Shown one piece after another: positions 30,318-59,005 of a stretch of DNA of 64,000 nt (within the stretch, counting starts at the first letter, position 1; each line of letters opens with the position of its first letter). This stretch comes from Fulvivirga sp. M361. GTDB lineage: Bacteria > Bacteroidota > Bacteroidia > Cytophagales > Cyclobacteriaceae. Under the pieces are notes generated by a model that did no database searches, had not been told where the DNA came from, and saw only the letters and a program-made list of their open reading frames with translations. The translations under genes and the position numbers were made by a program. The DNA is taken from positions 1 through 64,000 of the forward strand of contig NZ_VKDC01000034.1 in assembly GCF_007097395.1 (NCBI RefSeq). The letters are read 5' to 3'.

Positions 30318-31895
30318 TCAATACAAATCCCAATTCCCATCCAGGTAATACTTATACAATACCGGGTTATGGATCTTATTAATTTCAACGCTGTCTGTAC
30401 TCCCAAGGAAAACAGGTTTACCAAAAGAAGTAATGAGGGTCATAGCCTCCCGGTTGATCCATTCCGTAGACCTTTGATGAAAATCCAATGATCGTAAAGC
30501 GCTTTTAAGGCCTTCTTTATTGCCTCGCTTCGCTCCCAGGACCCAACCCCACTCGCCCAGTGTCACCACCTGGTTGTGTAAAGGTACGGTGCAGAATCCG
30601 GCCGAGGACATGGTTTTATCGATGCAATTAAATGCTTTGGCAGCGTAATACGGGCTACCTGCCTGGGTTATGATGAGCCCGTTTGGACGTAATCTTTTAT
30701 AGCATAACTTATAAAATTCAAAGGAATACAAACGACCCAATTCCACGGTCTTAGGGTCCGGTAGATCCACTATGATCACATCGTAAAATCTATTATCATC
30801 TTCCAGGAAGTTAAACCCATCTTCATTGAAAATAGTCACTTTATCATGGTTCATGCTGTTCCTGTTCATCTGTACCAGCCATGGGTGGGTCTGACCAAGT
30901 TGAGTCATAGCAGGATCAAGGTCTACTAAAGTAATATCTTCTACCTCTTCATACTTCAATATCTCTCTGACCGCACCGCCGTCCCCTCCACCCATGACAA
31001 GTACACTCCCGGGATCACGTGACAACTGCATTACGGGATGGACCAGCGGTTCATGGTACATGACTTCATCAATAGAACTCAACTGTTGGTTTCCATTCAG
31101 AAACAACCAATAACCATCTTCGGACCGTGTGATCGTGATCTTTTGATATTTGGTCTGTTCGTCATACACTACACGGTCTTTGTAACGGGATTGCTCTCCA
31201 TAGGTAATGATAGCTTTCGCAAAGAAAACCCCGGTAAACAACAAAGTCAGCGTACCTATGGTAGCCAGGTTTAACCTCATTTTTAATCTTTCATCCAAGA
31301 CAGACCGCAGCATCAAAAAAAGCCCGCACGCTACAATAAAATTGATCCCTCCCAAAATGAAAGGGGTATACGTAAGTCCCAGATAGGGCAACCCTATAAA
31401 GGCAAAGAATACTCCTCCAAGCAAGCTTCCGTAGTAGTCCTTCTCCATCACAGAAGACACATTAATACGCAGATCTTCAAACTCATCGTTGAGCCTTACC
31501 ACAAGTGGTATTTCCATGCCTATGAGCAGACCAATCACCACGCTGAGAGAATAGATCACAAAACCGGTATATCCGTAGAAAGCTGAGGCTGAATAAGTGA
31601 TCACAGACACAAACGCAGCCAGTATCGAGAGGGTAAACTCAATAAAAATGAAGCGCTCTAAGAGATTAACTTTGATATTTTTACTTATTCTGCTCCCCAG
31701 TCCCATAGAAAACAACATAATGGAAACGATCATTGTCCATTGAAAGACCGAATCACCAAGAAAATAAGTAGCAAGTGTGGAAAGGATGTATTCAGCCACT
31801 ATACCAGATAGCCCTGTCGCAAAGAGTGCGAGCTTTAATACATTTGAACGTAGTTTCACAGGCTGACGGTGGTGTAAATGGCTTTGGTTAAACAA
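30318..31895 (-). CDS. Membrane-embedded spermidine-synthase-like (aminopropyltransferase fold) protein
   Basis: A 525-residue protein. About seven transmembrane helices occupy residues 15-230, and a complete spermidine-synthase-type domain follows (about 245-500): YHEPLVHPVM, the AdoMet loop VLVMGGGDGGAVREI, ITLVDLDPAM, and VDLPDP carrying the Asp that deprotonates the amine in aminopropyltransferases. Unlike its paralogue at 2484-3932, all cofactor-binding residues are canonical, so it may well be an active enzyme using decarboxylated AdoMet at the inner face of the membrane. The start is TTG (31895); a GTG twelve codons later is equally possible. It lies 406 bp downstream of the DUF350 gene, so it may be the last gene of the locus or have its own promoter. 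Confidence 0.85.
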   Translation of the reverse strand: MFNQSHLHHRQPVKLRSNVLKLALFATGLSGIVAEYILSTLATYFLGDSVFQWTMIVSIMLFSMGLGSRISKNIKVNLLERFIFIEFTLSILAAFVSVITYSASAFYGYTGFVIYSLSVVIGLLIGMEIPLVVRLNDEFEDLRINVSSVMEKDYYGSLLGGVFFAFIGLPYLGLTYTPFILGGINFIVACGLFLMLRSVLDERLKMRLNLATIGTLTLLFTGVFFAKAIITYGEQSRYKDRVVYDEQTKYQKITITRSEDGYWLFLNGNQQLSSIDEVMYHEPLVHPVMQLSRDPGSVLVMGGGDGGAVREILKYEEVEDITLVDLDPAMTQLGQTHPWLVQMNRNSMNHDKVTIFNEDGFNFLEDDNRFYDVIIVDLPDPKTVELGRLYSFEFYKLCYKRLRPNGLIITQAGSPYYAAKAFNCIDKTMSSAGFCTVPLHNQVVTLGEWGWVLGAKRGNKEGLKSALRSLDFHQRSTEWINREAMTLITSFGKPVFLGSTDSVEINKIHNPVLYKYYLDGNWDLY

Positions 31896-32301
31896 TTATT
31901 TTGGCAAAGTAACCAGACTGGTTGGATTGGATATACATTGACACCTATTATTTGATGCTTACGTTTTGATGAACGCTTGACTTTCAGGCCGCTCTCATGG
32001 AGCCAATTCTTTTTTGTTTGCCAACACATGCACCCCTACCGAACTATAAAATTTTAAACCCCAGGCTTCACAGTTGCCATTAGGTTTTGTCTAATTTCAA
32101 CTGTAAAAAACATGTGAAATGTATAATTGAAAATAGGGATTAGTCATCCGACACAATGCGGCATATTAACTATTTAGATTCGGATACAGTTGATTTTCAG
32201 TATCACAACATTTCAATGGGACTTTGGAAATATTTTAACCTTGCCATCGGAATTATCAATAAGTTTTACTTATTAAATACGCATAAACGAAGTTTTTTTT
32301 A
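31896..32301. other. Gap between the DUF350 and spermidine-synthase-like genes
   Basis: About 406 bp. A + strand frame at 32156-32629 runs antisense into the DUF350 gene and is not credible. I see no hairpin terminator or perfect -7 box. Upstream of the synthase start (minus strand) there is TTACTTTG at about 31904-31911, which weakly resembles TAnnTTTG and would leave a very short leader. The gap may contain the synthase promoter. Confidence 0.35.
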
Positions 32302-33165
32302 TCAAAGCGCCCAGGTGATCAATACAGACCCACCGATATACGCAAAGGCCTCGACCAATGCCGCTCCGCAGTTAGGGTGCTCCTGGTTTACAATCTCATC
32401 GGTAAGGTTTTGTCCTGGCAGTAGTACTTTATCTGCGACAAAGCGTACTAATGGAAGCAATATCAATCCAATACCTACATCAATGCCCACATCTTCCAGG
32501 GTAATGATCCAGCTTTCAAAATCGTGCATCAAAGCAAAACGGATCAGATTAGCTATGGCTATCAACGCGCCTGCAAAACCGATACCGACCGCTATGTTCC
32601 CTTTTTCGATGTGTTCATGTACATCATAGGGAGTAATAAGGTTATATACCAGTGATGTTACATACATCAATGCCATGCCTAGCAGCCAATACAAAATACC
32701 TGTGACAATTGGCCCGCCGTCACCATGTCCTTCACCATGAATAGCTCCCAATACGATTAAACCCGTGGCAACACCTATGGCAGCCTCTACTACACCTGTA
32801 CCTATATTACGCTGTTCCAGTATTTCCTTTTTTACGCTGAATCGATTCAGGATCAATTTATCTGTAATAATGATGGAGAAATTCAGCAGTAATATCACTA
32901 ATGCCCCATAAATACCTATGTCCGTCAAATCCAGCCAAATACCATTACTCTCCCCCATCACAGCACTACCTATCGCTAATAACAGGCCAATAAAGTATCC
33001 CACATACGCTATCGCAAAAGCGAAATTATCGTTTTCGACTAATTCATGGTTTACTTTTACTTTGGGATGAAACAGTTGATAAACAAATTTGCCTACTAAA
33101 AACAGAATAAAAGATGCGACCAGGTAAACGGCCGTGGTAATGATACTATCAATAATGGATGTCAT
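32302..33165 (-). CDS. DUF350 membrane protein (two tandem DUF350 units)
   Basis: A 287-residue inner-membrane protein with eight predicted helices arranged as two DUF350/UPF0719 units: AIAYVGYFIGLLLAIGSAVM with the first unit, GIGFAGALIAIANLIRFAL with the second. Each repeat has the VENDNFAFAIAYVG or IEKGNIAVGIGFAG start. E. coli YjfL is a single-unit homologue encoded next to the PspA homologue YjfJ. The function is unknown; a transport or signalling role in the membrane is suspected. It lies 27 bp downstream of the YgiB-like lipoprotein gene in the same operon. Confidence 0.88.
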   Translation of the reverse strand: MTSIIDSIITTAVYLVASFILFLVGKFVYQLFHPKVKVNHELVENDNFAFAIAYVGYFIGLLLAIGSAVMGESNGIWLDLTDIGIYGALVILLLNFSIIITDKLILNRFSVKKEILEQRNIGTGVVEAAIGVATGLIVLGAIHGEGHGDGGPIVTGILYWLLGMALMYVTSLVYNLITPYDVHEHIEKGNIAVGIGFAGALIAIANLIRFALMHDFESWIITLEDVGIDVGIGLILLPLVRFVADKVLLPGQNLTDEIVNQEHPNCGAALVEAFAYIGGSVLITWAL

Positions 33166-33192
33166 GTTGATTCGTTTTAAATGGCCTTAATG

Positions 33193-33918
33193 TTATTTAC
33201 CGAAACCTCCACCCCTGGACCTGGAGCTGGAACTACCATATCTTGAACTTGACCGGGAAGTCCGGTTGGCCACACGCTGCTTGAATGAAGACTTGTTATT
33301 GCTCCAAACGGAGTTAGGCCGGGTGCTGCGGGTATAATTACTATTTGTGCCATAGTAAGACCTTCCTCCTGTAGTGGGGCCGTAATATGACCGTCCGGTA
33401 CCATAATAACTCCCCCTGTAGTTATCGTAATAAGACCGCCTGACAGGGTATGACATCATGTTAAACATGCTACTCATAAAGGCATATTGCCCGTAAAAGG
33501 CCCAAAAACTATTTCCCCCGCTGTTGTTCCAATAGCCATATCTTTTATTGCCTACATAATTATTATAACCGGGAGGGCTCACACTCTTCACCAGTTTACC
33601 GGTAGAGTCCCGTGACGCCAACTCCATCCCCATATCGTTGGCATGGCGTTCAAAGAAATTCTTATCTACTTCGTACCAATCCGTGATGCGCTCTTCGGGT
33701 TTACCAGGTGTTTTTTCTTCGATGATACGATACTGATGATTGTACTTATGAAAAAATGAACCCTCTACATCCATGTCATAGAGAATAATAGAAAACACAT
33801 GGTCGGAAGGTATATCTTTAGTAATGATATCGACCGGATTCTTTTGAAATTTCTTCCCCCCACAACTCATCATGCCTAAAGCCAAGATGAAAAGTAGTGA
33901 GTTTTTTAACGTTTTCAT
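33193..33918 (-). CDS. Lipoprotein with Gly/Tyr/Ser-rich tail, YgiB/YjfM (DUF1190)-like
   Basis: A 241-residue lipoprotein (lipobox LGMMSC). The N-terminal part (about 25-110) is a small soluble domain. The middle part (SGGNSFWAFYGQYAFMSSMF) and the long Gly-, Ser-, Tyr- and Arg-rich tail ending SRSRGGGFGK resemble in order the SFW-type segment and RGGFG end of E. coli YgiB/YjfM. I therefore propose it as a DUF1190-like counterpart; sequence identity outside these parts looks low. Its place between the DUF4178 and DUF350 genes matches the position of yjfM near yjfL in E. coli. The start at 33918 opens the signal peptide. Confidence 0.6.
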   Translation of the reverse strand: MKTLKNSLLFILALGMMSCGGKKFQKNPVDIITKDIPSDHVFSIILYDMDVEGSFFHKYNHQYRIIEEKTPGKPEERITDWYEVDKNFFERHANDMGMELASRDSTGKLVKSVSPPGYNNYVGNKRYGYWNNSGGNSFWAFYGQYAFMSSMFNMMSYPVRRSYYDNYRGSYYGTGRSYYGPTTGGRSYYGTNSNYTRSTRPNSVWSNNKSSFKQRVANRTSRSSSRYGSSSSRSRGGGFGK

Positions 33919-34005
33919 TTGTAAATTATTAATACAGAACCAAATATAACAAATCAAAAGGGCCTGTCAATAGCCAGCCCTATACTAAAAGGCCAATGCC
34001 CATGG

Positions 34006-34554
34006 TTATTGCCCGGGAATAATGTTCGATATCTGGTATGCTTTGACCACCTTACCTACCGAAGCTTCAAAATCACGTTCTCCCCATTGGGTAATAGACA
34101 AGATATGTACTTCTTCGTCATCGTAGTAATCCCACGAAACCAGTTCTTCCCAGTCGTCCGTTCCTTTCGTTTTATCGTTAAAATAACCAGCGTTATCGGT
34201 ATGCAGGTGGTATTTTATCCCTTCATATTCTAATTTTTTCGGTGGCCTTTCTTTTTTTATAGTCTTATCAATAATATCATCCCCCAGTTTACGGATCTTA
34301 ATATTTTTCATAGCCGTGATGAACAGCTCACCTTCATCTTCCACTCCAAGGTAAATCACTTCATCTCCCGCATCCATCATATATTCGCGTGAGATATTAT
34401 TACCCCCCCAGTCATATTCATACACCTCCTTTATCTCCCAGGATTTCATGTCATATTCCAGGATAAAACCCTGGTCCAGATCTTTGACACTCAGATTTGT
34501 CACATCATATTCCGGCTCTTTTTCTTTTTTCTTTAAAAAATCAAATAGTCCCAT
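34006..34554 (-). CDS. DUF4178-domain protein
   Basis: A 182-residue soluble protein beginning MGLFDFLKKKEKEPEYDVTN, with the beta-rich body (FILEYDMKSWEIKEVYEYDW; LEYEGIKYHLHTDNAGYFND; HILSITQWGERDFEASVGKV) typical of DUF4178. Proteins of this family recur beside PspA, DUF350 and spermidine-synthase-like genes in many bacteria; the E. coli neighbour of the PspA-like yjfJ, YjfK, is a distant relative. The molecular role is unknown. The basic amphipathic N-terminus (FDFLKKKEK) might bind membranes. It lies 68 bp after the 50-residue microprotein gene, in one operon with the AAA+ ATPase. Confidence 0.83.
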   Translation of the reverse strand: MGLFDFLKKKEKEPEYDVTNLSVKDLDQGFILEYDMKSWEIKEVYEYDWGGNNISREYMMDAGDEVIYLGVEDEGELFITAMKNIKIRKLGDDIIDKTIKKERPPKKLEYEGIKYHLHTDNAGYFNDKTKGTDDWEELVSWDYYDDEEVHILSITQWGERDFEASVGKVVKAYQISNIIPGQ

Positions 34555-34622
34555 GTTTTTTAATCTTATTTATATTTCAATGATCATATGCCAAGGCTAA
34601 TGCACCATAAAAATGATCTTAC

Positions 34623-34775
34623 TCAGCTACCAAATACTTTTTTAAACAAATACATCCCTGCTAGTATGATCAATGCCAATATACCTAGTTTAAATAAAAC
34701 TCTGAAAATAAACCCACCTACAAAAGCCAGTAATATCAGGACTATCATGACCTTAAAAACATCACTCGTTCTCAT
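34623..34775 (-). CDS. 50-residue single-helix membrane microprotein
   Basis: The protein begins MRTSDVFKVMIVLILLAFVG and continues with one long or two short hydrophobic segments (FIFRVLFKLGILALIILAGM), ending YLFKKVFGS. Its start codon lies inside the AAA+ gene, 14 bases before that gene's last base, in another frame, which implies coupled translation. The codon pattern (hydrophobic with polar ends) and the tight overlap support a real gene although it is too short for a family match. It probably sits in the inner membrane with the DUF350 and flotillin proteins. Confidence 0.65.
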   Translation of the reverse strand: MRTSDVFKVMIVLILLAFVGGFIFRVLFKLGILALIILAGMYLFKKVFGS

Positions 34776-37700
34776 CTTTCTTTGGTTTGTGTTTTAAATT
34801 TAACAATAACATCTCTTCTCTTATGCCATCCAGGTGCTTTGATATATTTCCCATTTCTTTCACCACCAAACCTGTCTGATTACCCTCTCCATAACCAGCT
34901 AATTCTTGTTTCTTCTGAAAGAGTGTAATAATATCTTCCCAACGTTCTTTTTCCGGCGGACTCATCAGGTCGATCAAAGATTTAAACTTTAATAAATTAG
35001 CCTCCGCTCCTGAAGTAAGTGTCTGTGATTCACTTTCGTAATGTGATATAATCAGATTTTGTAATTCATCCTCGTTCATAACGCTCACCACTTTTTCCGC
35101 AATTTTGTTCATATCACGGTAAGAGCCCTGAAGTTTAAAAGGGGGTTCAGTTCTATATTCATCAGACTGTGCTGCAGAATAGATATACTGTAGATTGACG
35201 GTGAGTATGACATCCCGCACCACCAATAGTTTTTTTATTAATTCCACATATTCTGAGATTTCCTCAGGTGAGTGGCTCGCTTCAAAATCTACTCCCTCCT
35301 GTTTACCACTAGCTGCTATCTTCAGAACGGAAAGTACATCTTTATGGCTCTTACCAGCCAGTTTTCCCAATACTGCATTTGAGGTAAGGCAGTTTTCAAT
35401 GTAGCTTAGTTTGAAAACATCTTCAGTATCTCCGAGAATATCTCCAAGGTTATAAATATCCGCCCTGTTGACTAACATATCCGGAATGCGAAATTTCTCA
35501 CCACTTTCAGTATATGGATTACCTGCCATGACCACACATACACGCTTACCCCGAAAATCATAGGTTCGGCTTTTCCCTTTATACACTCCCTCTATCTTAC
35601 GTTGCGCATCACATAAAGAGATGAATTTCTGCAAAAATTCAGGATTACAATGCTGGATATCATCCAAATAGATCATAACATTATCCCCCATCTCAAAAGC
35701 AAGGTTCAATTTCTTTAACTCTTCCCGTGCTCCCGAATTTGGAGCCTGTTTGGGGTCAAGCGCCACTACATCATGTCCAAGAGCAGGGCCATTGATCTTC
35801 ATAAAGATCACCCCCAGACGGTTAGCAATGTATTCCATCAATGTAGTTTTACCATAGCCCGGAGGGGAGATCAGCAAAAGCAATCCCATTAAGTCCGTCC
35901 GCTTTTCACTTCCGGCAGCTCCTATCTGCTTTGCCAGATTAGCACCAATTAAGGGTAGATAAACCTCATCAATCAATCGATTACGCACGAAAGAAGACAT
36001 AATACGAGGCCGAAATTCCTCCAGGCGCAGAGATTCAGCAAAATCATGGGTCATTTCCTTCTTCAACCTGTTATAAGCTTCAAAAAGAGGAACAGTCTCC
36101 CGCCGGTATTTTTTCAACTTTTGAGTAAAATGATTGAAATGCAGCTCATATTTATTGTCTGACAGCAATGCATGATTCCCTTGTAGCCCTTCCAGAAAAA
36201 TGTTTAGCGAAGCATGCACTACTTTACTTTTATGATAATCATCTGCAAGTAATATAACACTTACCTCTTCAGCATAATCTTTCCAATTTTCATTAGTATC
36301 CTGAGTTTGGATATAAGAATTCACCCAATTCTTTACATGATAAAAAGCCTGAGATAGATTATTGCCATAACCTTTTAACGAATCATCAAACTGCTTTTGA
36401 ACTTTTTTCGTTTTCAAGTGAGCCTTAAAAGCGTGCAGCAAATTATCCGCCTCTTTATCTATTACAAATTTATCCCCTCGTGAAAGCTCGTAAAAAAGGT
36501 ATTCAGCTGCAGTATCTGCATGCTCCGGAGTAAATAATTGCGTATTTTCTGTAAAATCCAACAGGTCATTTCGCAGAGAGACCAACAGGTTATCAAACTC
36601 CCTGGAATCAGGAAATACCTGTAAAATAATACCAGCCCCCTTCAGTTGGTGATCCAGTAGTTCTTTTCTATCCGGTGAGATATATTTTTTCCAAAACAAC
36701 GCTGCCATAGCTCTTGCGGTAGCAGGATATCGCAGTAAATCCGAGGTATGAATAAGGTTGACCAAAGCACGTAGGATATGTGCGGCATCACTGTCATGGA
36801 CCCCTTTAATATACCCTTCATCGAAACGAACAGACATAAATTTAACCACGTACTCATTCAGATCCTTATCAGACATTTGATAGAGATCTTCCACAGAAGT
36901 ATCCGGTTGAGTATTAACATCCTCCAAAATCATGTAAGCCAGATATTCCGCACGATACACCAGGTCATTTTCTGATACGAGCACCTGATCCAGCACAGCA
37001 GAATAGGTAGCTACAATGTCATTATCAATCGCTTCGAAAAAATTTGTTCCTGCCAAATGAAAATATAACGCATCTTCTTTCCTGACAATAGTCAGGTCAA
37101 AAGGTTGTGTATTTACCGCAAACTTATGAGGTCCAAATTTTATCACATCCTGACCATCCACAAACAATTCAGACCGGTCTTTCAGTTGGCGTACAGCATC
37201 TTCCTTTAACGTTTTAAGCCTGCTGACGATATCCTCGGATTTAACAGTATCGCCCATTTCCCCTAATTCATCTACGATACCTCTTATCTTTTCAATCATC
37301 ATATCAGCAGCATAATACCCATTGATCTCTGCGATGGATTCAAAACGTGATATCCTGTTTTCTATCGCCTTTAATATTCGGCCTGCTGCCTGCATCAAAG
37401 TATTGGCCCTTCTGTTTTTTTCCTCTATCAGGTTCAGCTTTCTATTCTCAAAAGCATTATACACCTCCTCACGCTTTACACTTATCTTCTCAATGAACTC
37501 ATCAAACTCTGAAAATTTAGCCTCTAACTCCTCAAGTTGTACCATAGTCTTGCTTAGGTATTCATCACATTTTCCAGGGCTGTCACACAGGTCAATAAAG
37601 TTGATCACACCCTGGTCCACCAACTTGATCTGGGCATTGAACTCTGCCTTGCCCTCAACACCCATCAACTCCTTACGTGTTTTTTTCAATGCTGCTTTCA

Positions 37701-39708
37701 ACTGGTTGAACTGAGAGTAAATGGCAGAGATATTATCAATGATCCGTGTAGTCTGAGTGGCATCTTTGATTTTCAGGTTACTCACAATCTCAATTAGCAT
37801 TTCAAGTTCCTGGGATACTTTATTGATCTGTATTTCAATCTCATTGGCCTCTACAACTTTTTTCACTTCATTAATTCGCTCTTTTAGAGCAGTCACCTTA
37901 TTTTCATAAGAAGCCAACGCTCTATCCTGCAGGAGAAAACCTACACAATCCTGAGAAACATTTTTATAGAATTCTGCCAATTGGTCATCATATCTATCAA
38001 TCACTTCCAGGTCCGCATATCTTAACTCTTTCAATGACACCACCTGCCCCCTCACTTTGCGGAGATCAGCAAGGTTTAGTACATACACATCAATATCTTT
38101 AGCTGTGCCTTTTTTTATTCTTTTGATAAGTTCATCAGCCGTATTGGTGACTTCTTCAATATGATTACCAGTAGCTTCTTTGATCTTGATTACTTTCTCA
38201 AACTCATCCACTGCTGAAGAAGCCACTTGCCGAATCTCTTCTAATGGCACATTCAAACCAAATGTCTCTTCTCTATTCAACCAGTGGTATGAATCAAGAA
38301 TATCCGTACCAATCCTAATGAGATCGACATACAACCCACTGTAAGAATCATCCTTATGGATCAGATTCAGTAGCTCATTACATTCCGCCATGGCCCTCAC
38401 TACTTCCTTGTTTCCAATCTTACTTAAATATGAATCGTTGGACCCTTCCACGGCGAAGTCCGGACCGGTATAAGGAGTTTGCCATATTTGAATAACATGA
38501 TGTTTCTTAGCTTCTTCGTCTGCCCTGAATAGGCACATTTCACCATTTTCAAAAATAGAGAAGCCATGACAAATGGTATGGTTTTCCACTTTCTGTTCTA
38601 TCAGATTATAATGCATCAACAGATAAGTGCCCGTAGACCGATTATAAAAAACGTATAAATAATCTTCGCCATTAGGAGATGCGATACGTTTCTCAAATAT
38701 CATAGAAGTTAATGCAGTATCGAATTTCTTAAATTCCCCGGCCTGCAAATAATATCCATTTCTGAAAATGATGCCATGATCGTCCGGTAACAGAATGCAT
38801 GAATCTTGTAATTCGTCTATCCTTCTGGCTTGATTGACCTTAGCATTAAAAACGATATACCGGTAATCTTCCTGATATGGTCTTATTTTCAAAATAACGA
38901 TGTTACCAACAATGGCATAATAAATCTCAGCGTCCTCAAGCGTTTGATCCTTATGATCTACCGGTTCCGAATATATTCCTTTACCATCATCGGTATTATC
39001 TTCTACCTTGATGGTCAGGTCACCTCCGGTGGTTTCTACAAACACTTTATCTTCAATAGAAACGTGAGAAAAAGTGCCTTGTCTGAAATTATCCCTGGTG
39101 GTTTTTTTCCATTTAAAGTCATGCTGTTCAGGAAACTTAAATTCATGGTCACTCCGGTTATCTATGTACTTGAGTTTATCACCTATTATCTTCCACTTAA
39201 AGGTTTTTACATCCGTAACATCTTTACCGATTCTAAATACCATATGGAGGTCGACACCATTTTTGAAAAACTTTACGAAATGGGTGTTTTTATAATACTT
39301 ATAGAGTTTCTTGAAGTCCTCGGCAAATACTTTATCATTAATCAGTCCGAGGTCTTCCTGATGAAACTCATGATCATGATAAGTGTAAATACTAAAAACA
39401 TCTGAAAGTTGAGTATCTGTTTTAAGACCTAAATGTACGTTATATCCAAAAAGAAAAATACCACCTACAGGTACCATGTCACAAGGCACACAATTGTTAT
39501 CTGTAGTCACCCTTTCCGTACCTACCAGTACGGTCTCAATGGATCCAAAGACTTTTTTTCGCTCTTCATTTAGCTTTTTTAACAGCCCTTGTAAATCTGA
39601 TGCACTTTTTTTTAATCTATTTTGAAGTATTTCATAGGTACCACCTTCCAGTTGGTCTGTGGTATCATTTATATTTTCAGATGGATTGACCTCACTGTTT
39701 TCTGCCAT
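34762..39708 (-). CDS. Giant AAA+ ATPase with DUF3686-type N-terminus
   Basis: A 1648-residue protein. Residues about 60-430 are a beta-rich DUF3686-type domain; then long helical and coiled-coil segments run from about 440 to 860 (LDSYHWLNREETFGLNVPL, many EKI/KEL heptads); a further alpha domain follows; the AAA+ module spans about 1270-1500. Walker A is ISPPGYGKTTL (Lys about 1287), Walker B VMIYLDDIQHC (about 1346), sensor 1 CVVMAGNPYT; MoxR-like features are present. Proteins of this kind have been labelled DNA-repair ATPases without proof. Here the gene is between the flotillin and DUF4178 genes, which argues for a membrane-remodelling or stress chaperone role. It has no signal peptide or membrane helix. 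Confidence 0.87.
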   Translation of the reverse strand: MAENSEVNPSENINDTTDQLEGGTYEILQNRLKKSASDLQGLLKKLNEERKKVFGSIETVLVGTERVTTDNNCVPCDMVPVGGIFLFGYNVHLGLKTDTQLSDVFSIYTYHDHEFHQEDLGLINDKVFAEDFKKLYKYYKNTHFVKFFKNGVDLHMVFRIGKDVTDVKTFKWKIIGDKLKYIDNRSDHEFKFPEQHDFKWKKTTRDNFRQGTFSHVSIEDKVFVETTGGDLTIKVEDNTDDGKGIYSEPVDHKDQTLEDAEIYYAIVGNIVILKIRPYQEDYRYIVFNAKVNQARRIDELQDSCILLPDDHGIIFRNGYYLQAGEFKKFDTALTSMIFEKRIASPNGEDYLYVFYNRSTGTYLLMHYNLIEQKVENHTICHGFSIFENGEMCLFRADEEAKKHHVIQIWQTPYTGPDFAVEGSNDSYLSKIGNKEVVRAMAECNELLNLIHKDDSYSGLYVDLIRIGTDILDSYHWLNREETFGLNVPLEEIRQVASSAVDEFEKVIKIKEATGNHIEEVTNTADELIKRIKKGTAKDIDVYVLNLADLRKVRGQVVSLKELRYADLEVIDRYDDQLAEFYKNVSQDCVGFLLQDRALASYENKVTALKERINEVKKVVEANEIEIQINKVSQELEMLIEIVSNLKIKDATQTTRIIDNISAIYSQFNQLKAALKKTRKELMGVEGKAEFNAQIKLVDQGVINFIDLCDSPGKCDEYLSKTMVQLEELEAKFSEFDEFIEKISVKREEVYNAFENRKLNLIEEKNRRANTLMQAAGRILKAIENRISRFESIAEINGYYAADMMIEKIRGIVDELGEMGDTVKSEDIVSRLKTLKEDAVRQLKDRSELFVDGQDVIKFGPHKFAVNTQPFDLTIVRKEDALYFHLAGTNFFEAIDNDIVATYSAVLDQVLVSENDLVYRAEYLAYMILEDVNTQPDTSVEDLYQMSDKDLNEYVVKFMSVRFDEGYIKGVHDSDAAHILRALVNLIHTSDLLRYPATARAMAALFWKKYISPDRKELLDHQLKGAGIILQVFPDSREFDNLLVSLRNDLLDFTENTQLFTPEHADTAAEYLFYELSRGDKFVIDKEADNLLHAFKAHLKTKKVQKQFDDSLKGYGNNLSQAFYHVKNWVNSYIQTQDTNENWKDYAEEVSVILLADDYHKSKVVHASLNIFLEGLQGNHALLSDNKYELHFNHFTQKLKKYRRETVPLFEAYNRLKKEMTHDFAESLRLEEFRPRIMSSFVRNRLIDEVYLPLIGANLAKQIGAAGSEKRTDLMGLLLLISPPGYGKTTLMEYIANRLGVIFMKINGPALGHDVVALDPKQAPNSGAREELKKLNLAFEMGDNVMIYLDDIQHCNPEFLQKFISLCDAQRKIEGVYKGKSRTYDFRGKRVCVVMAGNPYTESGEKFRIPDMLVNRADIYNLGDILGDTEDVFKLSYIENCLTSNAVLGKLAGKSHKDVLSVLKIAASGKQEGVDFEASHSPEEISEYVELIKKLLVVRDVILTVNLQYIYSAAQSDEYRTEPPFKLQGSYRDMNKIAEKVVSVMNEDELQNLIISHYESESQTLTSGAEANLLKFKSLIDLMSPPEKERWEDIITLFQKKQELAGYGEGNQTGLVVKEMGNISKHLDGIREEMLLLNLKHKPKKDENE

Positions 39709-39883
39709 TGTGCTGCATGTAAGTTATGGTTGAATCAATACGTTTAATTCGGATCAACTCTTTGAGTTCTGAAAGGTGATTTCACCAGAAAACCACTCGG
39801 TTTGATTGAAATTATCAGGCCCAAAAAGCTGCTTGTTATATCTTAAACACCTCCTCTATGCAGGAAGAATATAGACAGAGAGC
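39709..39883 (-). promoter_or_regulatory. Gap with inverted repeats between flotillin and AAA+ genes
   Basis: 175 bp. Two short perfect inverted repeats are present: AACTC-TTT-GAGTT (39756-39768) and GGTGA-TT-TCACC (39775-39786). They could be an mRNA processing hairpin or an operator giving the AAA+ gene its own control. No convincing -7 box was found. Confidence 0.35.
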
Positions 39884-41968
39884 TTATTTAAAGCCCAGAC
39901 TACCCGCATTATTATTGGATATCCCCAAAGTTTCGGTTAAAGATTTTAATTGACTCAGCACATTTTTAGACTCATCATCCTCGGCTTGTCCTATCATTTT
40001 AAGAAGTAACGCAGAGATACTCAGGTTTCTCAACTCTTCTGAAGAAATTCCAAATTGATCAACAAACCCTCGGATTTTGTCTTTAAAGTTTGTACCGGTA
40101 TCAGTGGAAAAGAAGGTATCTTTTACTTCACTGAGTACGTCGCTATTAGAAATAAGGCGATCCGCAGACTTACCGCTGGTGATGGAACCGACTATCTTAT
40201 CGAAAAACATGGTCTCCCCTCCTACTATATCAATATTTGCTGCTTTCAGCGCTTCTGAGATCACTTCCGCCTGTGCCATGGCTATGTCTTTCTGAATATT
40301 AATTTGCGCCAATTCAATCTGCTTTTCTTTTTCCAATCTCAGTTTAAACTCTTCGTGGTCTTTACTTACGCCATCCAGTATCTTCATGGCTTCCGCTTTT
40401 TTCTCTATACCCACGGCATCAGCAGTGAATTTTTCATGCATCACTTTAGCTTCAGCTAATCCAATTTTCTCTTCCGCATCTGCTTTAGCCATACCTTTTA
40501 ATCGGATGCCCTTAGCCTCAGCCTCAGACTGTGCTTCAATGACAGACGCTTCAGAATCCCCTTGTTTCTCTCTGGCTGCAGCTTTTGCTTCCATCACTTG
40601 TGCTTCGGCCATACCTAATGCCGCAGCTTCAGCTGCCTGGGCCTCTGCAAGTGTTTTCTTGGCTTCTGCTTTATGGGTGGCCGATGATTCCTGTGCCTGC
40701 GCATCTATCATCATTTGTTTGGCCAGATGCTCTGAAGCCTGCTTCTTGGCTTCCGCACTTTTTATTTCTTTTACCAGAGATTCTTCCGCATCTTTTTCGG
40801 CAAGCGTTATCGCCACATTTTTAGTCCTTTCAGCGCCTGCCATGGCCTTGATATCTGCCATCCGCTCTTGCTCTTCTACCACTGTTTTCTCTATGGACAC
40901 CCGCTCGCGGATAACATCCTGAATATTTTTTCGCTCTTCCTCTATCGCCTTTTCCTTTTCTATTCTCTTCAGCTCTACTATTCTCTCCTTTTCGGTGGCT
41001 TCCAGTAACTGGGCCTGTTCTACTCTTTCATTTTCAACCGCTTCTGTTCTTTCCTTGTTTTTTTGAGCTACCACCACTTCGCGAAGTTTGTTTTCTTCTG
41101 CTACCATCAACTCTTCATCGGCAGCAATTTTAGCCTTTTCAGCTTTTAACCGTTCTTCTTCTTTGATCTTACTTGTTTCCGACTCTTCACGCGCCTGAAC
41201 AGATTCAATTTCTCTTTTTTGCTTGGCGGTAGATTCTGCCAGTTGCCGTTCCAATTCCAGTACAGTCTCTTTGGCTTCCACATCTTGCTTTGTTATGGTC
41301 TTTTCTTTTTCACGTTGAATGTGATTAGCCTCTATTTTCTGTTTAGAAGTAAGGTCAATGATCTTTTTGATACCTTCTGCATCGAGGATGTTATTTTCAT
41401 TCATCGACTCGATCGGTGTTTGTTCCAGGTAATCTATAGCACAATCATCCAGCACATATCCATTGAGGTCTGTGCCTATGATGTTTAATATCTCTCTTTT
41501 GAATTCATCTCTACTATTGTAAAGGGATACAAATTCAAACTGCTTTCCTACCGTTTTCAATGCCTCAGAAAATTTGGCATCAAATAAAAGCTCTAAACCT
41601 TCTTGGTTTGATGCTCTTGAGCAACCAATGGATTGAGCCACTTGCTTCACGTCTTCATGTGTTTGGTTTACTCTTACGAAGAAGGTTACTTTAATATCGG
41701 CCCGCATGTTATCCTTACATACCAGTCCTTCTTTACCCGTACGTGCTATGACTACGGTTTTAAGTGTAATGTCCATAATTTCTATTTTGTGCAGGACCGG
41801 CACTACAAACATTCCGCTAAAAGATACCTTGGTACCTCCCATACCTGTACGTACAAGAGCCTCGCCCTGTACAGCTTTACGATACATCTTAATAAAGGAG
41901 GATACTACACCGATAAGGATGATTACTCCGAATATTATACCAACTATGCCAATGATATTTTCTTCCAT
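39884..41968 (-). CDS. Flotillin-like SPFH protein (YqiK type)
   Basis: A 694-residue membrane scaffold protein. One N-terminal helix (IVGIIFGVIILIGVVSSFI) is followed by an SPFH/band 7 domain (about 30-200; QGEALVRTGMGGTKVSFSGM, RADIKVTFFVRVNQTHEDV) and a long charged and then Ala/Glu-rich coiled coil (about 215-580), with the EA repeats that define flotillins; a C-terminal domain ends SNNNAGSLGFK. Flotillins organise membrane microdomains. The partner YqiJ-like OB-fold membrane protein is encoded 10 bp upstream, as in the E. coli yqiJK pair. A PspA gene precedes both, linking the pair to membrane-stress response. Confidence 0.93.
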   Translation of the reverse strand: MEENIIGIVGIIFGVIILIGVVSSFIKMYRKAVQGEALVRTGMGGTKVSFSGMFVVPVLHKIEIMDITLKTVVIARTGKEGLVCKDNMRADIKVTFFVRVNQTHEDVKQVAQSIGCSRASNQEGLELLFDAKFSEALKTVGKQFEFVSLYNSRDEFKREILNIIGTDLNGYVLDDCAIDYLEQTPIESMNENNILDAEGIKKIIDLTSKQKIEANHIQREKEKTITKQDVEAKETVLELERQLAESTAKQKREIESVQAREESETSKIKEEERLKAEKAKIAADEELMVAEENKLREVVVAQKNKERTEAVENERVEQAQLLEATEKERIVELKRIEKEKAIEEERKNIQDVIRERVSIEKTVVEEQERMADIKAMAGAERTKNVAITLAEKDAEESLVKEIKSAEAKKQASEHLAKQMMIDAQAQESSATHKAEAKKTLAEAQAAEAAALGMAEAQVMEAKAAAREKQGDSEASVIEAQSEAEAKGIRLKGMAKADAEEKIGLAEAKVMHEKFTADAVGIEKKAEAMKILDGVSKDHEEFKLRLEKEKQIELAQINIQKDIAMAQAEVISEALKAANIDIVGGETMFFDKIVGSITSGKSADRLISNSDVLSEVKDTFFSTDTGTNFKDKIRGFVDQFGISSEELRNLSISALLLKMIGQAEDDESKNVLSQLKSLTETLGISNNNAGSLGFK

Positions 41969-41978
41969 TTATTTATTC

Positions 41979-42617
41979 TTATTGTTGATCAGGTTCTATT
42001 AAATAGTGATTTTCATCTTTCATATAATCAATTACCAAGGCATACTCCCCTTTCTTGATCTCTACACCATCCCTTGTAATGGCGTTGATGCGTATAGAAG
42101 TACCGTTCGCATTAATTTCAGCCTGTCCGATGCTATCACTTTTTACTGTAAGCAAAACTTTACACTGTTTACCTATTGGGTTTACGGCCTCATCTTCTTT
42201 CCTGAGTTTCATGTAAAATTTAGCAATAGGCGTGGTTAGGATTTTCGCTATAAACAGACTTATTACAAAATACAATAGTAACATTCCTGCACTAACCAGC
42301 GTGTTGTAGACACCCAGATATTGAGCACTCACTATCGAGAGTATCCACATGGGTAATGCCAGAAAGCTAAGGAATATCATCAATGGCATGTGACCAATAT
42401 TAAAGAAGGATAAAACACTGGCCAATCCATCGCTGCCTACTCCTACATCACCATCTAAATCTATATCAACATCTGTATCCACATCCAGATCAATATCCAA
42501 TGTTTCAATATCAATCACACCTATGATCACTATGATCCAATAGACCAGAATGAAAGCCATAAATATCGTAGGTATGATATTGAGACCGGATAATGATGTT
42601 TCAATCAGTTGTTGCAT
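41979..42617 (-). CDS. YqiJ-like membrane protein with OB-fold tail
   Basis: A 212-residue inner-membrane protein with helices near 15-35, 75-95 and 105-128, and a C-terminal OB-fold domain (about 140-208; GKQCKVLLTVKSDSIGQAEI) of the kind seen in NfeD/YuaF and E. coli YqiJ, which act with flotillins. Between helix 1 and 2 is a strikingly acidic tract with alternating hydrophobic residues (DIDLDVDTDVDIDLDGD), which should lie outside the cytosol and could bind divalent cations. It forms a pair with the flotillin gene and follows the pspA gene by 42 bp. Confidence 0.87.
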   Translation of the reverse strand: MQQLIETSLSGLNIIPTIFMAFILVYWIIVIIGVIDIETLDIDLDVDTDVDIDLDGDVGVGSDGLASVLSFFNIGHMPLMIFLSFLALPMWILSIVSAQYLGVYNTLVSAGMLLLYFVISLFIAKILTTPIAKFYMKLRKEDEAVNPIGKQCKVLLTVKSDSIGQAEINANGTSIRINAITRDGVEIKKGEYALVIDYMKDENHYLIEPDQQ

Positions 42618-42659
42618 GTTATTAACGTTTGATGAGGTGTAGTAAAAAAATAAGGAGAA

Positions 42660-43382
42660 TTACTCCTCCTTATCTTTATCCATACCAAGTTTAGCTTTTA
42701 AAGCTGCCAGATCATCAGATACTTTTACTTCTGCTGAACCACCTTCCAGCGCTTTGTCGATTTCATCGTCAACACTTTTACTTTCGTTAGCAATGTCACC
42801 GTAAGATTCAGCCAGGGCTTCTTCTTCAGCTACTTTATCTTTCATTCTCTCCAACATCGAAACAGTACTACCGGAATCGATCTGGGCCATTTGCTTATTA
42901 AGCTTTTTAGTAGCTGTGCTTACCTTTACCCTGGCTTTGAGTGTTTTAAGCTCATTTTCATACGTACTAATAGTAGATCGGATCTTTTTCACATTCACAT
43001 CTAATTGAGAAACATTTTTCTCAAACCTATCCTGTTCCTCTTTAGCACGATTCATTTGCCCTGTAGCCTCTTCTTTCTTTACCAATGCTTCACTTGCCAG
43101 CCGATCCGCTTCCGCAGGGTCTAACTCACCCCCCTGGGCCCTTTTTAACAAAAGCATGGCTTTATTTTCATAATCCTTCGCCTTGTTCTTATAAGTATTC
43201 ACATCGTTTTTAGACCGGATGGCCATCGCCTTCACTTCTGCCAACGCCTGCAAACTTTTGTCCAAATCCGACTTGAGATCCCTGATCCCCTGTTCGGTCA
43301 ACTTAATAGGGTCCTCTAACTTATCAATCGCTGAATGAGCTTCGGATTGTCCTATTTTGAAGAGTCTTTTAAACATGTTCAT
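42660..43382 (-). CDS. pspA: PspA/IM30-family membrane-stress protein
   Basis: A 240-residue almost fully helical protein starting MNMFKRLFKIGQSEAHSAID, with the conserved amphipathic N-terminal helix and the KLEDPIKLTEQGIRDLKSDL segment of PspA/Vipp1 (ESCRT-III-like) proteins. The coiled-coil region runs to about 200, followed by an acidic end. Such proteins bind and reshape damaged inner membranes and maintain the proton motive force. No PspF-type activator or PspB/C genes are in the window; instead the partners here are flotillin, YqiJ-like, YbjN-like and AAA+ proteins. The second Met (MFKRLF) is an equally good start. Confidence 0.92.
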   Translation of the reverse strand: MNMFKRLFKIGQSEAHSAIDKLEDPIKLTEQGIRDLKSDLDKSLQALAEVKAMAIRSKNDVNTYKNKAKDYENKAMLLLKRAQGGELDPAEADRLASEALVKKEEATGQMNRAKEEQDRFEKNVSQLDVNVKKIRSTISTYENELKTLKARVKVSTATKKLNKQMAQIDSGSTVSMLERMKDKVAEEEALAESYGDIANESKSVDDEIDKALEGGSAEVKVSDDLAALKAKLGMDKDKEE

Positions 43383-43396
43383 ATCAATTTAATTTA

Positions 43397-43792
43397 TTAT
43401 TGTTCAGAAAATTTTATTAGTTCTTGCGAGTATTCACCCAGTAGCAAAGCCAGTGAATTTAGTGTAGCTTCAAGTTCGTTTAAATCAAGATTCTCCAGTT
43501 CATGGGTATTTCGAAAAATTACTTTTGAGCCTGTTTCATCCAGTACAAAAGCTCCATGGACAATGTCACGATTCTTTTGAAGCAGCTGTTTATACACCTC
43601 GGAGCCGGGGTTTTTGAGATCAAACAGAAACTGCTCTATAATAAGAATAGGGTCTGCTACACCGATAACCAGGTTGCTAATTCCATTAGCAGCATTTTCG
43701 ATGACTATCACACCGTCCTCTTCACTCTCATAAGTCATGTTGTAACCTAGTTCCAGTAAATACTCTTTTACTCTTTGGAAATAGTCGTTCAT
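43397..43792 (-). CDS. YbjN/CesT-chaperone-fold protein, first gene of the pspA operon
   Basis: A 131-residue soluble protein with the alpha-beta pattern of YbjN/type III chaperone-like domains (YFQRVKEYLLELGYNMTYES; LVIGVADPILIIEQFLFDL; VHGAFVLDETGSKVIFRN; NLDLNELEATLNSLALLL). E. coli YjfI, encoded next to PspA-like YjfJ, holds the same position. Such domains often bind peptides or helices of partners, so it could be a PspA regulator. It lies 14 bp upstream of pspA in the same operon; on the minus strand TAAATTTG at 43836-43843 is a perfect -7 box 44 bases before its start. Confidence 0.72.
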   Translation of the reverse strand: MNDYFQRVKEYLLELGYNMTYESEEDGVIVIENAANGISNLVIGVADPILIIEQFLFDLKNPGSEVYKQLLQKNRDIVHGAFVLDETGSKVIFRNTHELENLDLNELEATLNSLALLLGEYSQELIKFSEQ

Positions 43793-43843: not shown

Positions 43844-43959
43844 AAGTTTAGTCGTCCATAATCTTTCTTTACCTTGTATTTATTCACTCTTAAACAAATT
43901 GTATCGAACCTTTTTATTTTTGCTTTTGAATAAATTAACTATGTTTACGAGCAATAATA

Positions 43960-43972
43960 CCAAAAGTTTTGG
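43960..43972 (+). promoter_or_regulatory. Candidate operator of the XRE regulator
   Basis: CCAAAA and TTTTGG flank a single G, overlapping the probable -33 TTTG of the regulator promoter; TAGCTTTC at 43988-43995 would be the -7 box, 16 bases further. The position suggests self-regulation, and it lies in the region shared with the divergent pspA operon. Confidence 0.45.
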
Positions 43973-44008
43973 TTTTGCAAATATTTTTAGCTTTCTAATT
44001 TTTAATTA

Positions 44009-44788
44009 ATGTCACAAATAGGCAAAAACATTAAACGCATAAGGTCTGCTAAAAAACTGAATCAAAGTCAGTTTGCCGAAATATTCGGACTAACCCGAGG
44101 TAGTGTAGGGGCTTATGAAGAAGGACGCGCAGAGCCTAAAATCGACACCATCATACAAATAGCCAATAATTTTAGCCTCTCTATAGATCTATTACTTAAC
44201 AAAGAATTAACTGTAAATGACCTTTTTCATTTCGATGTGCTCCACCAAAAATTAGACGAAGCCCATCATTTTCAAAAACCTGCAACACAAGCCTTCAGAA
44301 AAGGGGGAATAGGACTGGTAAGCCTAGAAAATCAATTGGAATACATCGTCAATCATACTAACAAAGATTTTATTTCCCACCTCCCCTACATAGAACTTCC
44401 CATCAATTTCAAAGGAACTACAAGAGCATTTGAGTTAAACGGAAGTGAAATGGAGTACAACCAAAACGGGCTACACCATGGAGACATACTTCTTTGTTTA
44501 CAAACCGTAAAAACAAAAACAAAAACAAAACCCGGTGACGTTTATGTGATTGTTCATAAAGAAGGAATAATCACCCGGCGTTTAAAGTCTGCCGCAAAAT
44601 CGGGAATGAATTTTATAAGTGACGACCCCAATTATGCAGATATAGAATTTGCTACGGATGATATACTGGAGCTATGGAATGTAAAGGGCGCTTACAGCAC
44701 CTATTTAAACCCTCCAAAAATGATTGAAAACAGGGTAATGCTACTTGAGAACAGGCTTAATGAGTTGGAAAAAAAAATCAAATCATAA
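44009..44788 (+). CDS. XRE-family regulator with LexA/S24-like C-terminal domain
   Basis: A 259-residue transcription factor. Residues 4-62 form an XRE helix-turn-helix domain (LNQSQFAEIFGLTRGSVGAY). Residues about 125-215 match the S24/LexA-type self-cleavage fold (AFELNGSEMEYNQNGLHHGD; KPGDVYVIVHKEGIITRRLK). The expected nucleophile Ser is near 146, but the general-base Lys in the TVKRL-type strand appears as Arg (ITRRL), so cleavage may be lost. A leucine-zipper-like helix ends the protein (NRVMLLENRLNELEKKIKS). It is divergent from the pspA operon and is its most likely local regulator. The 3' end overlaps the cardiolipin synthase gene by 6 bp. Confidence 0.85.
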   Translation: MSQIGKNIKRIRSAKKLNQSQFAEIFGLTRGSVGAYEEGRAEPKIDTIIQIANNFSLSIDLLLNKELTVNDLFHFDVLHQKLDEAHHFQKPATQAFRKGGIGLVSLENQLEYIVNHTNKDFISHLPYIELPINFKGTTRAFELNGSEMEYNQNGLHHGDILLCLQTVKTKTKTKPGDVYVIVHKEGIITRRLKSAAKSGMNFISDDPNYADIEFATDDILELWNVKGAYSTYLNPPKMIENRVMLLENRLNELEKKIKS

Positions 44789-56401: not shown

Positions 56402-56415
56402 CCGAGGAGAAGGAT

Positions 56416-58523: not shown

Positions 58524-58525
58524 AT

Positions 58526-58552
58526 GCTGGGTGCTGGGTGCTGGGTGCTGGT
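58526..58552 (+). repeat. GCTGGGT tandem repeat
   Basis: About 3.7 head-to-tail copies of the heptamer GCTGGGT start two bases after the stop codon of the permease fusion. They mark the upstream edge of the inserted four-helix-bundle gene. Confidence 0.9.
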
Positions 58553-58581
58553 AAGTTTGTATCTATTAAGAGTATGAATAT

Positions 58582-58998: not shown

Positions 58999-59005
58999 AA
59001 ACCAG
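58960..59005 (+). repeat. CCAGAACCTAGAAA tandem repeat
   Basis: Three full copies of this 14-base unit plus CCAG. The array overlaps the end of the four-helix-bundle gene and its last base is the G of the GTG start of the second permease gene. It marks the downstream edge of the inserted cassette. Confidence 0.92.

What the first reader, a model, noticed from the sequence alone, without database searches (positions are those of the whole stretch)
30318..43792. Flotillin-PspA-AAA+-DUF350-DUF4178-aminopropyltransferase membrane locus
Ten genes on one strand join two modules known separately in E. coli: yqiJK (OB-fold protein plus flotillin) and yjfIJKLMC (YbjN/DUF2170, PspA, DUF4178-like, DUF350, DUF1190, glutathionylspermidine-synthase-like). 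Here a membrane spermidine-synthase-like enzyme takes the place of the glutathionylspermidine-like one, and a 1648-residue AAA+ protein and a microprotein are added. Sequence shows the gene order and family motifs; the E. coli parallels are established knowledge; the idea of a membrane-repair scaffold coupled to a polyamine-type product is inference.
Basis: partly seen in the sequence, partly recalled or inferred. Interest (0 to 1): 0.88.

Follow-up and report, generated by a model that had tools for sequence, protein, structure and literature searches.

The report
Membrane-stress operon with a polyamine-type branch
Ten neighbouring genes join two known bacterial membrane-protection gene sets, and related genomes suggest that a repressor gene and a small polyamine-chemistry cluster nearby belong to the same machine, whose chemical product is unknown.

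Summary
In detail: ten same-strand genes at 43792-30318 encode CesT/Tir-like protein, PspA, YqiJ-like protein, flotillin, DUF3686 AAA+, a 50-aa membrane protein, DUF4178, lipoprotein, double DUF350 and a membrane spermidine-synthase-like enzyme. Both halves are in print as separate PspA neighbourhoods (Ravi et al. 2024), so the AAA+ is no addition. The joined form recurs in 5 of 80 DUF3686 loci; a Flavobacteriales MAG carries all families within about 22 kb. A divergent HTH-S24 regulator (44009-44788) accompanies CesT at 28 of 28 CesT-plus-flotillin/AAA loci, with a LexA-like fold but without LexA's catalytic Ser. The only AdoMet decarboxylase found lies at 1408-1713, in a cluster with K+ channel, degraded synthase paralogue and oxidase; relatives keep such clusters 2-7 kb from the composite. 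Membrane synthase co-occurs with AdoMet decarboxylase in 21 of 21 genomes, against 39 of 275. Most likely: SPFH-anchored PspA membrane maintenance with an aminopropyl-transfer branch; acceptor unknown. New variant of a known kind.

The parts
43397..43792 (-). CesT/Tir-like protein (CesT_Tir_1), gene 1
   Evidence: Pfam 184 bits
42660..43382 (-). PspA/IM30 family protein
   Evidence: Pfam 150 bits; family profile matches E. coli YjfJ 2.5e-8
41979..42617 (-). YqiJ-like membrane protein
   Evidence: family profile matches E. coli YqiJ 1.4e-9; Pfam YqiJ_N below cut-off
39884..41968 (-). flotillin/SPFH protein, one N-terminal hydrophobic stretch
   Evidence: Band_7 on N-terminal piece; family profile matches YqiK 4.7e-65; hydropathy
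34762..39708 (-). DUF3686-DUF7902-AAA+ ATPase, 1648 aa
   Evidence: Pfam; SPPGYGKTT and YLDDIQHCN invariant in the 5 sequences (read as Walker A/B from recall)
34623..34775 (-). 50-aa hydrophobic microprotein, overlaps AAA+ stop by 14 bases
   Evidence: phmmer hits in L011-L014, a weak one in L156 between PspA and SpeD (0.00084); overlap kept in L011-L014; not found in L061
34006..34554 (-). DUF4178 protein, beta-rich model
   Evidence: Pfam 68 bits; AlphaFold pLDDT 88, no PDB fold match at E<=0.001
33193..33921 (-). lipoprotein with Cys-Gly at a lipobox-like place
   Evidence: Cys-Gly kept after the signal-like N-terminus in L011-L014 and L061 (by eye); no Pfam family above cut-off
32302..33165 (-). 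double DUF350 membrane protein
   Evidence: Pfam 192 bits, two stretches; hydropathy
30318..31895 (-). membrane-anchored aminopropyltransferase-like protein (spermidine-synthase-like)
   Evidence: Pfam 135 bits; GGGDG, D312/D314, D346, D364/D367 kept (numbering, which starts at 31856)
44009..44788 (+). divergent HTH + S24-like regulator, LexA catalytic residues replaced
   Evidence: Pfam; at 28/28 loci with CesT and flotillin/AAA; LexA fold; Ser->Glu, Lys->Arg
43959..43973 (.). operator-like palindrome ACCAAAACTTTTGGT (O2)
   Evidence: 7/7 half-site pairs;
43977..43991 (.). operator-like imperfect palindrome GCTAAAAATATTTGC (O1), 18 bp from O2
   Evidence: 5/7 pairs
1408..1713 (+). AdoMet decarboxylase (SpeD-like), only one found in the genome
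1691..2497 (+). K+-channel-like ion channel
   Evidence: Ion_trans 126 bits, Ion_trans_2 55 bits
2394..3932 (+). degraded paralogue of the membrane aminopropyltransferase (start uncertain)
   Evidence: Spermine_synth 99 bits; GGENG and other changes
3975..5489 (+). FAD amine-oxidase-like protein
   Evidence: Pfam Amino_oxidase 24 bits, NAD_binding_8 31 bits

Best explanation
A PspA envelope-maintenance system with a dedicated aminopropyl-transfer branch. Inferred working: the flotillin/YqiJ pair forms a membrane platform to which PspA is recruited; the CesT/Tir-like protein chaperones or restrains PspA; the DUF3686 AAA+ remodels these assemblies; the 50-aa protein tethers the AAA+ or PspA to the bilayer. 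AdoMet decarboxylase (1408-1713) makes decarboxylated AdoMet; the membrane enzyme (30318-31895) transfers its aminopropyl group to an amine at the membrane face; the oxidase and K+ channel remove or sense the product, and the DUF350 protein and lipoprotein link this to the envelope. The divergent S24-like protein, unable to cleave itself by the LexA reaction, binds two operators 18 bp apart in front of the CesT gene and controls the operon by binding a ligand or partner. Shown: gene content and order, recurrence, co-occurrence, kept or lost active-site residues, LexA-like fold of the model, excess of palindromes. Inferred: every protein interaction, the acceptor, operator binding and the signal.
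For: Same-strand composite in L011, L012, L013, L014, L061 of 80 loci. A Flavobacteriales MAG contig carries S24 and a PLD-like gene divergent from CesT-PspA-micro-SpeD-Kch-DUF4178-lipoprotein-DUF350-SpdS, then (opposite strand) the oxidase and a second SpdS, then YqiJ-flotillin-AAA+, in about 22 kb. SpeD-Kch-SpdS2-oxidase lies 5.3 kb from the composite SpdS in L011's contig and 7.0 kb in L013's; oxidase-SpdS2-Kch lies 1.7 kb away in L014. Over 296 Bacteroidota genomes: membrane SpdS with SpeD 21/21 against 39/275 (Fisher 1e-16); DUF3686 with strong CesT_Tir_1 8/8 against 10/288; composite-type SpdS with strong CesT_Tir_1 6/6 against 12/290. dcAdoMet-binding and catalytic-type residues kept. 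S24 at 28/28 loci with CesT and flotillin/AAA. Palindromes at 14/28 against shuffled mean 3.2, max 10. Published precedent: SPFH protein YdjI needed to bring PspA to the membrane (PMC8581546 abstract); loss of the CesT/Tir-fold BacA raises the levels of its operon partners, PspA-like BacB among them (PMC10948618, passages).
Against: The composite is rare: of the 8 DUF3686 genomes among 296, only the window's own has it. Only 23 of 80 DUF3686 loci show CesT upstream; most others show YqiJ-flotillin-AAA+ alone or are cut, so flotillin/AAA+ can do without the dyad in cis. The SpeD link is not special to the membrane enzyme: all 24 genomes with only weaker synthase matches also have SpeD. Other membrane synthases show no CesT link (2/15). 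Gaps of 175 and 406 bp, and genes between flotillin and AAA+ in L061 and L022, allow separate transcripts. L061 lacks a detected microprotein. The SpeD cluster is 25 kb away in the window and not in the stretches read of L012 and L061; in L014's host SpeD is on a contig of another length. Fisher values ignore shared descent, and score limits were set after seeing the scores. No acceptor and no interaction is shown; 14 of 28 intergenic regions have no palindrome by my rule.
Confidence: 0.5

Rival explanations
1. The membrane enzyme simply makes spermidine (or a close polyamine) for the cell, and stands beside the PspA genes because polyamine level and membrane state are co-regulated.
For: It is the only strong match to Spermine_synth in this genome that keeps the motif, and the only AdoMet decarboxylase found is in the same window. 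nspC, of the alternative spermidine route, has only a sub-threshold match (50 against 409 bits). SpeD goes with any synthase-like gene in the sample.
Against: L014's host has a separate SpeD-SpdS-like fusion of 426 aa (L153) besides its membrane enzyme; G005, G087 and L061's host show SpeD frames of 442-456 aa that would fit such a fusion (not read). An integral membrane anchor is not needed for soluble polyamines (recalled).
Confidence: 0.3
2. Two independently regulated operons that happen to lie end to end on one strand, kept together by short genome distance only.
For: 406-bp and 175-bp gaps; insertions at the joints in relatives; G088 has the two modules on different contigs.
Against: Order kept in 5 other loci; composite-type SpdS genomes all carry the CesT dyad gene, 6/6, even when unlinked as in G005 and G088; the Flavobacteriales contig has another order of the same parts.
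Confidence: 0.15
3. Anti-phage defence locus.
For: The SpdS domain matches PADLOC mad2 at 1.7e-18, the AAA+ mad8 at 0.0007 and PspA LmuB at 1e-4.
Against: The mad2 hit covers 143 residues of the synthase domain only; 6 of the 10 proteins have no PADLOC match, and the regulator's matches cover mainly its HTH. The gene set matches a described stress-response neighbourhood.
Confidence: 0.04

Closest known systems
PspA neighbourhood group 1 of Ravi et al. 2024 (PMC11237479): CesT/Tir-PspA + band-7/flotillin + beta-propeller AAA+ + YqiJ/YuaF
   Same: genes 1-5 here, same families; four unnamed relatives show this five-gene unit
   Different: here followed by microprotein, DUF4178, lipoprotein, DUF350 and membrane synthase; a divergent S24-like regulator stands at 28 of 28 loci with CesT and flotillin/AAA, and S24, LexA and XRE do not occur in that paper's main text (supplements not readable here)
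PspA neighbourhood group 2 of the same paper: CesT/Tir-PspA + 7TM-spermidine synthase + 8TM DUF350 + lipoprotein + DUF4178
   Same: genes 7-10 here; forms with CesT-PspA and without flotillin/AAA+ in the stretch read: L123, L124, L127
   Different: here no second CesT-PspA dyad; the dyad lies with the flotillin/AAA type in a tree
Group 3 variants of the same paper: AdoMet decarboxylase, K+ channel, polyamine oxidase, DUF350, ATP-grasp
   Same: SpeD, ion channel and oxidase-like gene at 1408-5489
   Different: no ATP-grasp among the 18 window genes scanned; instead a degraded membrane-synthase paralogue
E. coli yjfIJKLMC and yqiJK
   Same: YjfJ, YjfL, YqiJ, YqiK homologues
   Different: YjfI weak; YjfK, YjfM, YjfC not matched
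Pseudomonas aeruginosa bac operon (bacA-bacF, PMC10948618, passages read)
   Same: CesT/Tir-fold BacA and PspA-like BacB in one operon
   Different: sigma-54 site proposed there; no spermidine synthase in or around it (paper's own words)
B. subtilis YdjI-PspA with YdjG/H (PMC8581546, abstract read)
   Same: SPFH protein linked to PspA
   Different: no AAA+ and no polyamine gene named in the abstract; partners YdjG/H

Membership tests
Ravi group 1 (CesT/Tir-PspA-YqiJ-flotillin-AAA+) | all five families in one run on one strand | tested here: met
   beta-propeller nature of DUF3686 not tested
Ravi group 2 (PspA dyad + TM-spermidine synthase + DUF350 + lipoprotein + DUF4178) | DUF4178, lipoprotein, DUF350 and membrane synthase together | tested here: met
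   number of TM helices not determined; lipoprotein not compared with Ctha_1186 (no such model at hand)
Ravi group 2 | own CesT-PspA dyad of the group-2 type | tested here: not met
   only one dyad in the run; group-2 dyads form their own branch (89/90), composite dyads lie among flot/AAA dyads, as one side of a branch only at 73/89
aminopropyltransferase (spermidine synthase) family | sequence family and dcAdoMet-binding/catalytic-type residues | tested here: met
   Pfam, PDB relatives such as 2e5w, 6bq2, residues; roles of residues recalled
aminopropyltransferase family | enzymatic aminopropyl transfer | not testable with these tools
   needs an assay
LexA/CI-type S24 repressors | HTH plus S24 fold | tested here: met
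LexA/CI-type S24 repressors | Ser-Lys dyad for self-cleavage | tested here: not met
   against E. coli LexA the window has Glu at S119 and Arg at K156 (residue roles recalled). By eye no relative with an alignable domain has Ser there; L012 keeps a Lys, L034 and L045 cannot be aligned there
E. coli yjf operon family | DUF2491, DUF1190, ATP-grasp partners | tested here: not met
   no profile match to YjfK, YjfM, YjfC
flotillin/SPFH | Band_7 domain after an N-terminal hydrophobic stretch | tested here: met
AdoMet decarboxylase | family match with ESH cleavage-site motif | tested here: met
   53.5 bits; AESHFAIHT in the translation; motif meaning recalled

The most novel reading that the evidence does not exclude
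A bacterial ESCRT-III/flotillin membrane-maintenance machine that carries its own membrane-embedded aminopropyl-transfer branch, acting on a membrane acceptor (lipid head group or membrane protein) rather than making free spermidine, with a catalytically lost synthase paralogue as sensor and a cleavage-dead LexA-like repressor as switch.
Probability: 0.25. Interest if true: 0.85.

Novelty: new variant of a known kind. Interest (0 to 1): 0.58.

Why it matters
Ravi et al. proposed from separate neighbourhoods that PspA systems respond to polyamine level or aminopropylation. This locus and its relatives put flotillin, PspA, AAA+ and the aminopropyl branch in one place, add a regulator and a microprotein, and show that the membrane synthase was not found without AdoMet decarboxylase in the 296 genomes sampled. 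That makes the question of what the membrane aminopropyltransferase modifies directly testable: delete the one decarboxylase and look at lipids and amines. If a lipid or protein is aminopropylated, it would be a new kind of membrane modification.

Tried and rejected
Anti-phage reading: PADLOC gave no convincing system. DUF4178 function from structure: confident model (pLDDT 88) but no PDB match at E<=0.001. CesT-like protein against PDB sequences: nothing significant (best E 0.24), so the published BacA structure was not reached by sequence. S24 regulator against PDB by sequence: HTH only; the fold search gave LexA. Alternative spermidine route by nspC: only a sub-threshold match, so inconclusive. 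A gene hidden in the 406-bp gap: none convincing in the window. Promoter and terminator scans at chance level. Cardiolipin synthase at 44783-46240 as a part: beside S24 only in the window and L011 of the loci compared, left out. My first guess that L014's SpeD lies beside its composite was wrong: that contig has another length. Microprotein next to AAA+ outside composites: of 78 AAA+ loci (window included), 11 gave a hydrophobic small ORF: 5 composites, L043 with one that looks related, and 5 that I judged unrelated by eye. Papers holding DUF3686: none in the held library. Passages of PMC11107197 held no mention of transmembrane or membrane-bound synthases.
Full report
Observation. The ten ORFs are present at the given coordinates on the minus strand. 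Gaps run from -14 to 84 bp except 175 bp before the AAA+ gene and 406 bp before the last gene. Pfam supports CesT_Tir_1, PspA, DUF3686+AAA, DUF4178, DUF350 (two stretches) and Spermine_synth, and Band_7 on the N-terminal piece of the flotillin. Against nine E. coli K-12 proteins, profiles of the families match YjfJ 2.5e-8, YqiJ 1.4e-9, YqiK 4.7e-65 and YjfL 1.7e-6; YjfI reaches only 0.14; YjfK, YjfM and YjfC are not matched (E-values scaled to 4300 proteins, set by me). So the DUF1190 label and the YjfK parallel are not supported.

Already in print. Ravi et al. 2024 (PMC11237479; section 19 read whole; other passages) describe one neighbourhood with CesT/Tir-PspA, band-7/flotillin, AAA+ with beta-propeller and YqiJ/YuaF, a second with CesT/Tir-PspA, 7TM-spermidine synthase, 8TM DUF350, lipoprotein and DUF4178, and a third with ATP-grasp and K+ channel, of which variants carry AdoMet decarboxylase and polyamine oxidase. 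They already propose that PspA-based membrane dynamics monitor polyamine level or aminopropylation. Their supplementary tables could not be read here, so I cannot say whether they list a joined form. The term DUF3686 occurs in no paper of the held library.

Relatives. In 5 of these 80 the AAA+ gene is followed on the same strand by DUF4178, lipoprotein, DUF350 and the membrane synthase: L011 Fulvivirga MAG, L012 Cytophagales bacterium Alg240-R148, L013 Flammeovirgaceae MAG (its contig begins inside the AAA+ gene, so upstream genes are not seen), L014 Roseivirga MAG, L061 Splendidivirga corallicola. The microprotein is found in the first four, not in L061. CesT is seen in 23 of the 80; one locus, L040, has PspA without detected CesT or S24. 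The rest show YqiJ-flotillin-AAA+ without the dyad, or are cut. Four unnamed relatives read at length show the five-gene unit alone. In G088 the five-gene unit (L007) and a SpeD-Kch-DUF4178-lipoprotein-synthase unit (L125) lie on different contigs. Among 296 Bacteroidota genomes DUF3686 occurs in 8; by the places only the window's genome has the composite.

The wider system. The one AdoMet decarboxylase found in the genome (97.55% complete) is in the window at 1408-1713, followed by an ion channel, a second membrane synthase and an FAD amine-oxidase-like gene. In L011's contig the same cluster is 5.3 kb from the composite synthase, in L013's contig 7.0 kb; in L014 oxidase-SpdS2-Kch is 1.7 kb away, though that host's AdoMet decarboxylase is on a contig of another length, in one 426-aa frame with a synthase-like part (L153). 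In L012's and L061's hosts it is not in the stretches read. In a Flavobacteriales MAG (L043 and L156, one contig, overlap checked) S24 and a PLD-like gene stand divergent from CesT-PspA-micro-SpeD-Kch-DUF4178-lipoprotein-DUF350-synthase; next come the oxidase and a second synthase on the opposite strand, then YqiJ-flotillin-AAA+. From the coordinates I reckon 22.4 kb from AAA+ to PLD-like gene.

Co-occurrence over 296 genomes. The membrane-synthase family, taken as matches of E < 1e-100, is in 21 genomes. The other 24 genomes that matched (E 1.3e-35 to 7.5e-31, 176-280 of 513 model positions, frames of 283-443 aa) were set aside as not of the membrane family. AdoMet decarboxylase is in 21 of 21 and in 39 of 275 others; 24 of the 39 are exactly the set-aside genomes, so the link is with synthase-like genes in general, 45 of 45 against 15 of 251. 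It supports use of decarboxylated AdoMet by the membrane enzyme, not a special tie. CesT_Tir_1, taken as E < 1e-40, is in 18 genomes (20 weaker genomes set aside): 8 of 8 DUF3686 genomes against 10 of 288; 6 of 6 genomes with composite-type synthase (over 640 bits) against 12 of 290; but only 2 of 15 genomes with the other membrane synthases. Fisher values 1e-16, 3e-11, 2e-8 and 0.23 ignore common descent, and the limits were set after seeing the scores.

Enzyme. The composite synthases of 6 loci form a branch with support 99/96. They keep GGGDG, the two acidic residues of VDLDP, the Asp of the ExD stretch, DLPDP and YHE (roles recalled from spermidine synthases). Solved relatives are spermidine and thermospermine synthases and the like. 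The paralogues at window 2394-3932 and in L014 have GGENG, YFE and altered acidic positions, and sit on very long branches, so their place in the tree is unsure. I read them as having lost or changed activity.

Regulator. Of 105 loci compared (L007-L090, L123-L142, window), 31 have CesT; 28 of them, the window included, have an HTH-S24 protein on the opposite strand upstream. The three without (L123, L124, L127) have no flotillin or AAA+ in the stretch read. Of 56 flotillin/AAA+ loci without detected CesT, several of them cut, one has S24; L043, counted there as without CesT, has both further along. The S24 part of the model is more confident than the HTH part (mean pLDDT 69), and the model matches LexA structures (best E 9e-6; TM-score to LexA C-domains up to 0.76, to the whole query at most 0.40). 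In the HMMER alignment to E. coli LexA (E 0.002) the Ser119 place is Glu and the Lys156 place Arg. By eye, relatives have Glu, Gln, Asp, Leu, Val or Thr for the Ser; L012 keeps a Lys at the second place; L034 and L045 cannot be aligned there; four distant ones (L008-L010, L081) have lost much of the domain. In 14 of 28 intergenic regions a 15-mer with AAANTTT core (one mismatch allowed) and at least 6 of 7 complementary half-site pairs is found, against a mean of 3.2 and maximum of 10 in 200 first-order random sequences; pairs 18 bp apart in 6 of 28 against 0.5 and maximum 3. Half-sites change together: ACCAAAA/TTTTGGT, CTAAAA/TTTTAG, CTCAAA/TTTGAG. The rule was made after seeing the sequences, so this is suggestive only.

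Dyad history. A tree of concatenated CesT+PspA alignments (32 rows) places the stand-alone group-2 dyads on their own branch (89/90) and the composite dyads among the flotillin/AAA type; L061 is nearest to L022 and L024 (99/98), which have no synthase module in the stretch read. The composite rows are one side of a branch only at 73/89 when ungrouped rows are ignored. So the composite looks like a five-gene unit to which a dyad-less synthase module was added, with later loss or transfer; this is inference.

Mechanism. Best reading and rivals are given in their sections. Experimental support from other systems: SPFH protein YdjI is needed to bring PspA to the membrane in B. subtilis (PMC8581546, abstract); in P. 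aeruginosa, loss of BacA, a CesT/Tir-fold protein, raised its operon partners about 6- to 13.5-fold (PMC10948618, passages); yjfIJKL was strongly upregulated in heat-evolved E. coli (PMC12492005, passages). In what I read of these, neither a membrane synthase nor the DUF3686 AAA+ was tested.

Verdict. New variant of a known kind; the acceptor of the aminopropyl group is the open question.

Noticed in passing
44783-46240: Cardiolipin-synthase-like PLD protein (PLDc_2 144 bits) convergent with the S24 regulator, also near it in L011; 11 other loci carry a single-HKD PLD-like protein, in L012, L014, L022 and L061 directly after S24.
   Followed up: partly
L012:15075-18158: Genes inserted between microprotein and DUF4178; one matches the TPM domain weakly (E 0.0073, below cut-off), a domain Ravi et al. 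link to PspA in Firmicutes.
   Followed up: partly
L061:7661-9889, L022:7724-9941: A DUF5687 gene (L061 tested; L022 by likeness) and an ABC-ATPase-like gene (by eye) lie between flotillin and AAA+.
   Followed up: partly
34762-39708: Relatives of the DUF3686 AAA+ are annotated 'DNA repair ATPase' or 'DNA repair protein' in 5 of 12 plasmid-collection records matched, which the gene context here does not support.
   Followed up: no
L133:8098-9333, L140:7377-9056, L141:7493-8659: Other membrane-synthase neighbourhoods carry SpeD with larger DUF4178 proteins, or a GSP_synth ATP-grasp.
   Followed up: partly
55484-59895: Genes that look like a metal ABC transporter (by eye) with a small four-helix-bundle-like ORF at 58582-58998 among them.
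   Followed up: no
46396-47610: DNA polymerase IV-like gene (by eye) near the S24 regulator; an ORF of the same length lies near it in L011.
   Followed up: no
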